The notes under the pieces are model-generated. The model saw only the letters and a program-made list of their open reading frames with translations, did not search any database and had not been told where the DNA came from. A stretch of 64,000 nucleotides of DNA from Phycisphaerae bacterium (GTDB lineage: Bacteria > Planctomycetota > Phycisphaerae > UBA1845 > CAIVHJ01), in the NCBI GenBank assembly GCA_022072405.1, contig JAJVHX010000012.1:87807-151806 (forward strand), in the 5' to 3' direction. The position numbers and the translations under genes are program-made. Below, piece after piece: positions 33,587-36,499 of the stretch. Position 1 is the first letter of the stretch. Each line of letters opens with the position of its first letter.

Positions 33587-34453
33587 TCATTCCATCCAAT
33601 CCTCCCAGTCGGGTACATAATGTGGATCGTTTGAATTGCCCACCGAAGCAATCCGATGCGTAGACCATAATTTTATTAGAGTCGAATCAGTTGTGTGAAT
33701 ACTATCGCCCGGTTCATACGTTTCCGCATGACCATCGGCAGAAACAGCCTGGGCCTTTTCTTGATGACGAAAAGCAGTATTAGGTGAGGGATTTGAATTC
33801 CATTCGCCGCCGGAAAAATGGTTGGGTGGTTCAAGTACATAATTGTTGAACACCTGGGATCCCAGTTGAAGAAGAGTATCGGAGAAGACAAACACTTGTG
33901 AGGGTTGTTTAATTTCCGTGATGTTCAACCAGGAGTGATTTGGAAAATCCCCAAATCCCGAGTAAGAGGAGGCCAGGTAATAGCTGTTGTATCCATAGGT
34001 GCTGGTGGGCGGTCCCCATCCACCGGGCGCGGGTGAATAGCTGCCCCAGGGTTGCCGTGGACATTCGAATATGGAATTGCTGACATGTGGCAATTGGAAA
34101 TAAGGCCATAAAAATCCTAGGCGATGATCGACTGATTTTTCTATGAAATTAACGGTTCCCCACCAATAGGGTGTAGGACCATTACCAATAATGTCGCTTT
34201 GCCAATAGACACCCGGCATACACATATCATGATGATCCAGCGTATATGCAGTGAAGGCCAAATCCAGTTCGCGCAGTCGGGCGAGGCAGAGCACATTATG
34301 AGCCTGCTGCCGCGCCGACACCAGGGAGGGCAGCAGTACGGAAAGCAGCAGCGAAATAATGCCGGTCACCACCAGCAGTTCGAGCAGCGTAAAGGCAGAT
34401 CGGCCGGCTTGCTGACGCGGATGATCGCTGATGAAATAATATTTTGAAGTCAT
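33587..34453 (-). CDS. Prepilin-type (type II secretion/pseudopilin-like) protein
   Basis: RSAFTLLELLVVTGIISLLLSVLLPSLVSARQQAHNVLCLARLRELDLAFTAY; planctomycete-style pseudopilin; start MTSKYYF at 34453. Confidence 0.88.
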   Translation of the reverse strand: MTSKYYFISDHPRQQAGRSAFTLLELLVVTGIISLLLSVLLPSLVSARQQAHNVLCLARLRELDLAFTAYTLDHHDMCMPGVYWQSDIIGNGPTPYWWGTVNFIEKSVDHRLGFLWPYFQLPHVSNSIFECPRQPWGSYSPAPGGWGPPTSTYGYNSYYLASSYSGFGDFPNHSWLNITEIKQPSQVFVFSDTLLQLGSQVFNNYVLEPPNHFSGGEWNSNPSPNTAFRHQEKAQAVSADGHAETYEPGDSIHTTDSTLIKLWSTHRIASVGNSNDPHYVPDWEDWME

Positions 34454-34489
34454 GATGCATCTGTCGCCATAACGAGTGATGATTCGCAT

Positions 34490-34517
34490 ATAGCCGCCGG
34501 TTGGAACCGGCGGCTAT
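34490..34517. repeat. Perfect hairpin ATAGCCGCCGGTT-GG-AACCGGCGGCTAT
   Basis: 13-bp perfect arms with 2-nt loop between the beta-propeller gene and the prepilin gene. Confidence 0.7.
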
Positions 34518-34555
34518 CTTGAAGCGCACGATTAATATCCACGACTCATACAGCG

Positions 34556-36070
34556 TCAGGGTTCAATGGGCCAAGCCTGCCAGGAAACCGGGATTGATAC
34601 GGGCGAAATTTCGGCTGACCAGGGTTGGGGACAGGGGTCGCGGAAGGCATGCATACCGGCCTGGCCGATGGTGAAGAGCCAGCCACTGACGATGGCCGGC
34701 GAACTGCCCGCACCGACAAAATGATCAATGATAAAACCACTGTCGCCCGGTGCCAGGCCAGGGTTCAGGATGTAAAGATCAGTGTAGGGCGCGGTGGTAT
34801 CGAAGCCGTCGGGCACGGTGCCGACGTAGATTCGCCCGCCGGCGTAGACTGGCTGGTGGGTCCAGCCGCCGATCAGCAGGGCAGCGTCGGGATCTTCGGG
34901 GTCGTAAGTATCGGCGTAGGTATCCCAGAGCAGGGCGGCGGAAGTGGTGTTGTCCTGGAAGGCCTGCAATGTGGGAAACTGGCCGAATCCGAAAATTCCT
35001 CCAGTCAGGTAGACGCGCTGACCCACCACCAGCGGTGTTGAGTCAGTGGGTACCGCGGATTCCTGCCACAGCGTTGCTCCCGTGGTTGCGTCAAGCTTGA
35101 CCAGTACCCCGTCGCCATAAAAATTGTAAGTGGCGGCATAGAGAGCTCCGCCGCTGACATTCACGCCGCTGTAAAATCCTTCAAAACTGGCCGATTGAAA
35201 ATTCTCCGATACCCACAGCGGCGCGGGCATCGAACCGGGCGGCGGAGTCGCGGTGGCATCAAAGGCGTAGATGAACGCTTCAGCACTACTCACATAGACC
35301 ACGCCATTCGCGTAAGCCGGGGTATTGCCGGAGGTCGCCCCAATATCGGCGACCCAGACAATCTCGCCCGGCTGATAGGGGTTGTTGACGGTGTGAAATG
35401 GATCGACGTTGATGCAGTAAAGCAAGCCGCCGCTACCGAAGCCGGAATAGTCGGAAATAAAAACGCGATTGCTGGGCGTACCGTTAGTGAAAAGGTTGGT
35501 CGTGACCACCGGCGAGGCATTCACTACCGTTTTTTCCAGAGCGGTTTGCCAGACCAGCGCTCCCGTCGTGGCATGGAGGGCGTGCAGTTGATCGCCCGAG
35601 GCAATCAGCACCCGATTATTGCGGGTATCGATAGCGGGGGAGGACCAGGAACCCAGATCGGCCGGAGTGGCAGTGATCAGGCTCTGCCAGAGGACCGCAC
35701 CAGTCGTGGCGTTGAGGGCGACCAGTTTATCATGGTCCAGATCGTGGAAAGCGTAGGCGTAGAGTCTGCTGTTGTAGATCATCGGGCTGCTCGGGCCGGC
35801 GAATTCGATCGGCTGCTGACTGCCGTCCACACCGCGGACCCAGCGCAGCTGGCCATTCAGTCGTGATGGACCGCTACCCGTAATCACCGAGTTGCGCTGC
35901 GGCGTGGCGGCATAGTGTGTCCAGGAACCATTCACCCCGCAGAGCTTCTTGATCAACGTGGGGCGGGTATCAACAGCTACAGGTGGCTGGACAGCAATGG
36001 ACGGTGGCGGTGCGGTCGGCAAGAGTAAAGATGAAAAGAACAACAGTGCATACGATGGCAGCATCGACAT
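34556..36070 (-). CDS. Secreted PQQ-type beta-propeller repeat protein
   Basis: Signal-peptide-like N-terminus; repeated propeller units LVALNATTGAVLWQ, LHALHATTGALVWQ, LVKLDATTGATLWQ. Confidence 0.88.
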   Translation of the reverse strand: MSMLPSYALLFFSSLLLPTAPPPSIAVQPPVAVDTRPTLIKKLCGVNGSWTHYAATPQRNSVITGSGPSRLNGQLRWVRGVDGSQQPIEFAGPSSPMIYNSRLYAYAFHDLDHDKLVALNATTGAVLWQSLITATPADLGSWSSPAIDTRNNRVLIASGDQLHALHATTGALVWQTALEKTVVNASPVVTTNLFTNGTPSNRVFISDYSGFGSGGLLYCINVDPFHTVNNPYQPGEIVWVADIGATSGNTPAYANGVVYVSSAEAFIYAFDATATPPPGSMPAPLWVSENFQSASFEGFYSGVNVSGGALYAATYNFYGDGVLVKLDATTGATLWQESAVPTDSTPLVVGQRVYLTGGIFGFGQFPTLQAFQDNTTSAALLWDTYADTYDPEDPDAALLIGGWTHQPVYAGGRIYVGTVPDGFDTTAPYTDLYILNPGLAPGDSGFIIDHFVGAGSSPAIVSGWLFTIGQAGMHAFRDPCPQPWSAEISPVSIPVSWQAWPIEP

Positions 36071-36244
36071 GGGTCAGTACCTCCCGTACTGGCTGGGGCG
36101 CGTAATCAGTTTCGCGCCCGCCTTGCAGGAAGGGCAGACCCCGTGCGGCTACGATACTGTCGGCTGGTTAACCAGGTATGATAAACAGCGGCAGGAAATA
36201 GCGGCATGGTGATACGCCTCAACCCACGAAGGCGATTCATGGAA

Positions 36245-36470
36245 TTCCGCTGGCAGGTCTCCTGACTCCCGAGCTGCCTACTAACCGCCCCTTCTCGATT
36301 TTCAGTGAACGAACTGGGAACCAGTTCTTGAGGGCTGAAGCCCACGGCTCATTGAAGATCAATGGGATATTGCGGCGTTCGTTCTCGGTTACAGTGGCGG
36401 GGCCGTTCCGGATTTACACCGGATTCCCTATTCTGCAGCGGACCCCAAGTCCGCCGCCACCAGCTACGAA
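36245..36470 (-). promoter_or_regulatory. Cobalamin riboswitch aptamer
   Basis: On minus strand: AATAGGGAATCCGGTGTAAATCCGGAACGGCCCCGCCACTGTAACC (B12-box core) and GGGAGTCAGGAGACCTGCC (3' conserved element). Confidence 0.95.
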
Positions 36471-36471
36471 C

Positions 36472-36499
36472 AATCTACCCGCAAAATGGGGGATGTCAA
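36472..36499 (-). promoter_or_regulatory. Putative sigma70-type promoter for the riboswitch transcript
   Basis: Minus-strand TTGACA, 16 nt, TAGATT directly before the aptamer. Confidence 0.6.

What the first reader, a model, noticed from the sequence alone, without database searches (positions are those of the whole stretch)
33587..36499. Cobalamin riboswitch heads a beta-propeller plus pseudopilin operon, a possible uncharacterised B12-linked surface system
Seen: a minus-strand B12 aptamer with a good TTGACA-16-TAGATT promoter, followed on the same strand by a secreted PQQ-type propeller gene (34556..36070) and then a prepilin-like gene (33587..34453). Established: cobalamin riboswitches normally control B12 synthesis, transport, or B12-independent isozymes. 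Inference: neither gene is a known B12 gene, so they may form a surface B12 capture or uptake module. No btuB, btuFCD or cob gene is visible nearby.
Basis: partly seen in the sequence, partly recalled or inferred. Interest (0 to 1): 0.85.

Follow-up and report, generated by a model that had tools for sequence, protein, structure and literature searches.

The report
B12-riboswitch operon with dedicated pilin
A vitamin-B12-sensing RNA switch controls a small set of genes for secreted surface proteins, nearly always ending in one special pilin-like gene, that occurs across a class of planctomycete bacteria and looks like an unreported way of catching B12 in cells that mostly lack the usual B12 import channel.

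Summary
A full-length cobalamin aptamer (RF00174, 111 bits) lies at 36479..36235 (-), behind a TTGACA-16-TAGATT promoter. It is followed by a secreted propeller (P) and a prepilin with an H-X9-DG motif (C). It is the only cobalamin riboswitch in the genome. The arrangement is not accidental. 59 of 61 genomes of the order carry the riboswitch, and 57 of 59 evaluable loci have an orthologue of C downstream. Starting from C alone, 67 of 80 named genome loci have the riboswitch upstream; only 2 of the other 13 have 4 kb or more of upstream sequence. C is a distinct subfamily: the home genome has 44 pilin-like hits, 291 bits against at most 111. The genes between switch and pilin vary. The commonest (47 of 59) encodes a homologue of the B12-binding domain of Bacteroides BtuH2/BtuG1 (the only PDB hits, 2e-19 and 2e-29). 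The window keeps P and C but lacks that gene; riboswitch-P-C recurs in five other loci. The home genome has MetH and a BtuFCD-like transporter, but no detected MetE, CobM/CbiF or TonB-dependent receptor. Best reading: a B12-repressed surface B12-capture module built on a dedicated pilin. B12 binding by P or C, and the pilin's job, are inferred.

The parts
36472..36499 (-). sigma-70-type promoter, TTGACA (36499..36494), 16 nt, TAGATT (36477..36472)
   Evidence: 10 of 12 consensus matches; similar boxes at about -35 to -41 in many relatives. Transcription not shown.
36235..36479 (-). cobalamin riboswitch aptamer with a 56-nt insert in a peripheral arm
   Evidence: RF00174, 111.1 bits, E 5.4e-27, full model length; only match in the genome
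36071..36234 (-). leader / probable expression platform: possible anti-SD CCTTCC (36133..36128) opposite SD GGGAGG (36085..36080), 9 nt before the ATG
   Evidence: The ensemble centroid pairs these two stretches. No terminator of the kind seen in 27 of 61 loci. Translational control is an inference.
34556..36070 (-). secreted PQQ/BamB-like beta-propeller, gene P, 504 aa
   Evidence: PQQ_2 1.9e-21; 36-43% identical to orthologues in 14 of 15 relatives' loci and 27% in L033; AlphaFold2 pLDDT 82.7; best folds BamB and tetrathionate hydrolase
34490..34517 (-). perfect inverted repeat between P and C (28-nt hairpin, no U-tract)
   Evidence: fold z-score -3.74 for the surrounding 121 nt. Role unknown.
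33587..34453 (-). prepilin with H-X9-DG motif, gene C, dedicated subfamily
   Evidence: TIGR02532 over cut-off; alignment A2, with H230/D240/G241 invariant in 38 sequences; the only full-length match in the genome, 291 bits against at most 111

Best explanation
This is the home genome's version of a Phycisphaerae-wide, B12-repressed module for catching vitamin B12 at the cell surface. When B12 is scarce the riboswitch lets the operon be expressed. A secreted propeller (P), and in most relatives a BtuH-like B12-binding protein (H) or other PEP-CTERM or dockerin proteins (B, G, X), bind corrinoid outside the cell. A dedicated pilin (C), assembled by the cell's type II secretion or type IV pilus machinery, carries, displays or hands on the bound vitamin. 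A BtuFCD-like transporter elsewhere in the genome then moves it across the inner membrane to serve MetH. Shown: the riboswitch, the operon's conservation, the specificity of C, the H-BtuH homology, and the genome's set of B12-related genes. Inferred: repression by B12, B12 binding by P, C or H, and everything about how B12 crosses the outer membrane.
For: Aptamer. Conservation in the order: 59 of 61 genomes and 57 of 59 evaluable loci with C. Independent search from C alone: 80 loci, 60 with a B12 box or Rfam match upstream and 7 more by Rfam. C is a separate subfamily. H is homologous to the BtuH domain: phmmer 1.1e-9 (7BIZ) and 1.5e-9 (8BLW), profile 2e-29 and 2e-19 with no other hit at E of 1 or less, type I H against type II H hhalign 99.9%, and the only fold hit below 1e-3 for type I H is BtuG1. 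The nucleotide-loop contacts of BtuH2 given in PMC8941943 (Asn399, Gln333) fall on the GNA(F) Asn, invariant in alignments A3 and A5, and on the Gln of PAPGQ, present in 13 of 16 of A5. Riboswitch-P-C without H recurs in L147, L172, L178, L195 and L203. Intrinsic terminator after the aptamer in 27 of 61 loci against 1.3 expected. Need for B12: MetH, no MetE, no CobM/CbiF over cut-off in any of 61 genomes, BtuFCD-like cluster. No TonB-dependent receptor at home.
Against: The window itself has no H gene, and the H profile finds none in the genome, so the direct B12 link is by orthology of context. P is a BamB/PQQ-type propeller by sequence and fold, not a BtuG relative. The tetrapyrrole contacts of BtuH2 (Tyr510, Trp511, Trp577, His476) are not clearly conserved in the Phycisphaerae H proteins. 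In the window P and C are 103 nt apart with a strong hairpin between them. Nothing was measured, and the genome is 93.7% complete, so absences are provisional.
Confidence: 0.72

Rival explanations
1. Capture only: the secreted proteins hold B12 at the surface, and C is merely the pseudopilin needed to export or position them. B12 crosses the outer membrane through an unrelated porin or an undetected receptor.
For: The genome has 4 secretins and 12 T2SSE-type ATPase matches, so pseudopilins acting in secretion are plausible; PEP-CTERM and dockerin tails suggest export and anchoring.
Against: C is the one constant gene while its supposed cargo changes completely (H, P, B, G, X). A general secretion pseudopilin would not need B12 control or one subfamily per regulon.
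Confidence: 0.35
2. The window's copy is a relic: H has been lost, the terminator is gone, and P and C are drifting under a switch that no longer matters.
For: No H in the genome; no intrinsic terminator; 103-nt gap with a hairpin between P and C.
Against: P and C are intact and 36-46% identical to most of their orthologues; the aptamer scores 111 bits; a good SD precedes P; riboswitch-P-C recurs in five other loci.
Confidence: 0.1
3. The switch serves the methionine / S-adenosylhomocysteine cycle: its real target is ahcY, and the surface genes are incidental.
For: ahcY starts 119 bp from the aptamer (36599, +); in relative G001 (L031) ahcY lies directly after riboswitch-C on the same strand.
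Against: In the window ahcY is divergent and cannot be in the riboswitch transcript. Among the fetched loci ahcY was seen linked only in the window and G001, while C is nearly constant.
Confidence: 0.04
4. P is an ordinary BamB or quinoprotein and the linkage to the riboswitch is chance.
For: BamB and PQQ enzymes are the best sequence and fold matches.
Against: P scores 39 bits against the BamB cut-off of 285 and 34 against the PQQ alcohol dehydrogenase cut-off of 480; P precedes C in 73 of 80 loci found from C alone.
Confidence: 0.03

Closest known systems
Bacteroides B12 loci with BtuG and BtuH (B. thetaiotaomicron loci 1-3)
   Same: Cobalamin riboswitch in front of secreted B12-binding surface proteins; a propeller and a BtuH domain side by side (fused in BtuG1, separate genes here); the BtuH domain is shared by sequence.
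   Different: No BtuB/TonB-dependent receptor in the operon or in the home genome; PEP-CTERM or dockerin tails instead of lipoprotein anchors; a dedicated pilin is the constant gene; P is BamB/PQQ-like rather than BtuG-like; the window lacks the BtuH-like gene.
BtuJ / DUF4465 B12-binding proteins (one tested member is from the planctomycete Mucisphaera; PMC13398666)
   Same: Secreted B12 capture proteins, one of them from a planctomycete.
   Different: None of the representative operon proteins scanned matches DUF4465.
E. coli BtuB-BtuFCD
   Same: A BtuFCD-like inner-membrane ABC transporter is present elsewhere in the genome.
   Different: No outer-membrane receptor of that type; the riboswitch controls the surface operon instead.
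H-X9-DG / DUF1559-type planctomycete pseudopilins
   Same: Prepilin N-terminus and H-X9-DG motif.
   Different: C forms its own full-length subfamily tied to the B12 riboswitch.
Pili-like fibres binding dextran in Planctopirus and Gemmata (PMC5394234)
   Same: Fibres as substrate catchers in planctomycetes, with dextran reaching the periplasm.
   Different: A polysaccharide substrate, other planctomycetes, and no gene assigned in the passages read.

Membership tests
Cobalamin riboswitch (RF00174) | aptamer scores above the family's gathering score | tested here: met
   111.1 against 31.5 bits, full length
Cobalamin riboswitch (RF00174) | an expression platform that responds to corrinoid | not testable with these tools
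   Terminators in 27 of 61 relatives; in the window only a possible SD/anti-SD pairing
BtuH family (B12-binding C-terminal domain) | homologous domain, in the operons of relatives | tested here: met
   7BIZ 2e-19 and 8BLW 2e-29, no other hit at E of 1 or less
BtuH family (B12-binding C-terminal domain) | homologous domain, in the window or home genome | tested here: not met
   Profile A3 finds nothing in G000
BtuH family (B12-binding C-terminal domain) | B12-contact residues | tested here: inconclusive
   Asn399 equivalent invariant and Gln333 equivalent in 13 of 16 of A5; Trp577 and Tyr510-Trp511 not clearly kept
BtuG propeller | BtuG/YncE-type seven-bladed propeller | tested here: not met
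   P matches PQQ_2/BamB; B-type first genes show no BtuG hit
BtuG propeller | forms a lid on a BtuB receptor | tested here: not met
   No PF00593 or PF07715 in the home genome
BamB | TIGR03300 cut-off | tested here: not met
   39 against 285 bits
DUF4465 / BtuJ | DUF4465 Pfam match | tested here: not met
   No match in the Pfam scans of the window genes and representative operon proteins
H-X9-DG prepilin-like proteins | prepilin N-terminal signal and H-X9-DG | tested here: met
   TIGR02532 18.3 against 16.3 bits; H230, D240 and G241 invariant
E. coli-type BtuBFCD uptake | TonB-dependent outer-membrane receptor | tested here: not met
   37 of 61 genomes of the order lack any Plug domain
E. coli-type BtuBFCD uptake | BtuFCD ABC transporter | tested here: inconclusive
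   Best NCBIfam models for permease and binding protein are BtuC and BtuF, below cut-off; single FecCD in the genome

The most novel reading that the evidence does not exclude
A B12 uptake route independent of TonB-dependent receptors: the dedicated pilin C is part of a pseudopilus that picks up B12, directly or from H or P, and draws it through a secretin into the periplasm.
Probability: 0.27. Interest if true: 0.92.

Novelty: new variant of a known kind. Interest (0 to 1): 0.74.

Why it matters
How diderm bacteria without TonB-dependent receptors obtain B12, too large for ordinary porins, is open. Here a whole class of planctomycetes carries one B12-regulated operon whose constant part is a pilin and whose variable parts include a BtuH-type B12-binding domain. 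That gives a named, testable candidate for such a route, extends BtuH-like capture proteins beyond Bacteroidetes, and would give one of the many orphan planctomycete pseudopilins a substrate. The literature searches made here found no earlier report of this operon.

Tried and rejected
Short ORF between aptamer and P (44 codons): no Pfam match. Type I H profile against PDB sequences: only chance hits; the link to BtuH came from the fold search and from type II H. BtuG identity for P and for the B-type propellers: no support. G-type proteins: no structural relative, and Pfam shows mainly PEP-CTERM, dockerin or EF-hand type matches. The motif first read as a conserved ribosome-binding site after the aptamer proved to be an intrinsic terminator in many loci. 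P0094 looked like an H-pilin fusion but ends early in the pilin and may be an assembly or gene-calling effect.

Full report
Observation. Infernal finds one cobalamin aptamer in the window, 36479..36235 (-), 111.1 bits, covering the whole model. It is the only one in the 3.57 Mb, 28-contig, 93.7% complete genome. The two genes are as described: a secreted PQQ_2-type propeller, here P, and a prepilin, here C.

Is the linkage meaningful? 59 of 61 genomes of the same order have RF00174, nearly always once. I fetched these loci, translated them, and scored them with profiles built here. Of 59 evaluable loci, 57 have a C orthologue on the same strand downstream. Gene orders: H-P-C 15, B-H-C 13, G-H-C 9, H-C 6, X-C 6, G-C 4, H alone 2 (L040, where the sequence is partly masked, and L068), and one each of C, G-H-H-C, H-P-H-C and P-C (the window). 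H is present in 47. The test was then turned round. A scan of GTDB contigs with the pilin alone returned 80 loci, nearly all titled Phycisphaerae, Phycisphaerales or Planctomycetota. 60 have a B12 box upstream on the same strand (in L171 the box matched by pattern is spurious but Rfam finds the aptamer nearby), and Rfam adds 7 more. Of the 13 without one, only L158 and L173 have 4 kb or more of sequence upstream. P lies before C in 73 of the 80. The window's arrangement, riboswitch-P-C without H, recurs in L147, L172, L178, L195 and L203, and riboswitch-C alone in L154.

C is its own family. The profile of C finds 44 pilin-like places in the home genome. Only the riboswitch-linked one matches along the whole length (291 bits); the next has 111 bits over the N-terminal part. 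The window's C was itself in that profile, but so were 37 others, and the gap to the next hit is far larger than its own contribution would give. Known structures match only its pilin N-terminus. In 38 sequences the Glu of the pilin signal and H-X9-DG are invariant.

The B12 link. Gene H sits between switch and pilin in most relatives. AlphaFold2 gives a good model of a type I H (pLDDT 84.5), and its only PDB fold hit below 1e-3 is BtuG1 of B. thetaiotaomicron, whose C-terminal 250 residues are a BtuH domain (PMC10404256). The superposition itself is poor (TM-score 0.26), so this alone would be weak. A type II H from L039 matches BtuH2 (7BIZ) at 1.1e-9 and BtuG1 at 1.5e-9 by sequence. The type II profile matches BtuG1 at 2e-29 and BtuH2 at 2.2e-19 and nothing else at E of 1 or less. 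Types I and II are homologous (hhalign 99.9%, 3e-37). BtuH2 binds B12 (PMC8941943). Of its reported contacts, Asn399 corresponds to the invariant Asn of the GNA(F) motif in both types and Gln333 to the Gln of PAPGQ in 13 of 16 type II sequences (mapping by chain numbering, offset 100, counted by eye on the printed alignments). The tetrapyrrole contacts are not clearly conserved, so binding remains to be shown. H was not found in the home genome.

The propeller. P has 36-43% identity to orthologues in 14 of 15 relatives' loci, 27% in L033. Its model is good (pLDDT 82.7), and its best folds are BamB and tetrathionate hydrolase. It is far below the BamB and PQQ-dehydrogenase cut-offs. Most relatives carry a dockerin-like tail; the window's P does not. 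Whether P binds B12 is unknown. Propeller and BtuH domain next to each other resemble the two halves of BtuG1, but P is not a BtuG relative by sequence.

Physiology. The home genome encodes a full-length MetH (assigned by its sequence), no detected MetE, no CobM/CbiF (no genome of the 61 passes the curated cut-off), one FecCD permease in a cluster whose permease and binding protein match BtuC and BtuF best, and no TonB-dependent receptor barrel or plug. In the order, 37 of 61 genomes lack any plug domain. It has 4 secretins and 12 T2SSE-type ATPase matches. The likely picture is a B12-scavenging cell without the usual outer-membrane B12 channel.

Regulation. 27 of 61 loci have an intrinsic terminator within 260 nt of the aptamer, against 1.3 expected from shuffles. 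The window does not; its leader can pair CCTTCC with the SD GGGAGG, suggesting translational control. The leader as a whole folds only modestly better than shuffles (z -1.86), so this is an inference. Between P and C is a perfect 28-nt hairpin without a U-tract.

Mechanism. Best supported: a B12-repressed surface capture module with a dedicated pilin (0.72). How B12 enters is open. A pilus-driven route fits the constancy of C and the lack of receptors, and planctomycete fibres are known to bind dextran that reaches the periplasm (PMC5394234), but nothing here shows it (0.27). The main rival is that C only serves export or positioning of the capture proteins.

Novelty. Surface B12 capture behind a riboswitch is known in Bacteroides. 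The pilin, the absence of BtuB, and the spread of BtuH-like domains through Phycisphaerae were not found in the literature searched, which holds open-licence papers only. I call it a new variant of a known kind.

Noticed in passing
window 34490..34517: Perfect inverted repeat ATAGCCGCCGGTT-GG-AACCGGCGGCTAT between P and C, no U-tract, single copy in the window; role unknown.
   Followed up: partly
window 36599..37867 (+); L031: Adenosylhomocysteinase gene divergent from the riboswitch; in the same-family genome G001 it follows riboswitch-C on the same strand, so B12 control of ahcY is possible there.
   Followed up: no
L037, L036, L044, L045, L049, L052, L053, L060, L072, L075, L081, L087, L088 (alignment A7): A small secreted family (W-x-G-x-G-x-N ... 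G-W, PEP-CTERM or dockerin tail) behind the B12 riboswitch, with no known structural relative; candidate new corrinoid binder.
   Followed up: partly
L054, L057, L058, L066, L073, L079 (alignment A8): Another secreted dockerin protein family taking the place of H and P between riboswitch and pilin.
   Followed up: no
P0094: Predicted protein joining an H domain, a dockerin and the start of the C pilin in one frame; may be a real fusion or a gene-calling effect.
   Followed up: partly
L170, L204: Records titled Leptolyngbya sp. PLA1 and Cyanobacteria bacterium carry the pilin operon and look like mislabelled planctomycete bins.
   Followed up: no
L154 6324..6523: Two Acido-Lenti-1 RNA matches just upstream of a riboswitch-C locus.
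   Followed up: no
window 37889..38584 (-): QueC-like protein, oriented like the riboswitch operon, upstream of the divergent ahcY.
   Followed up: no
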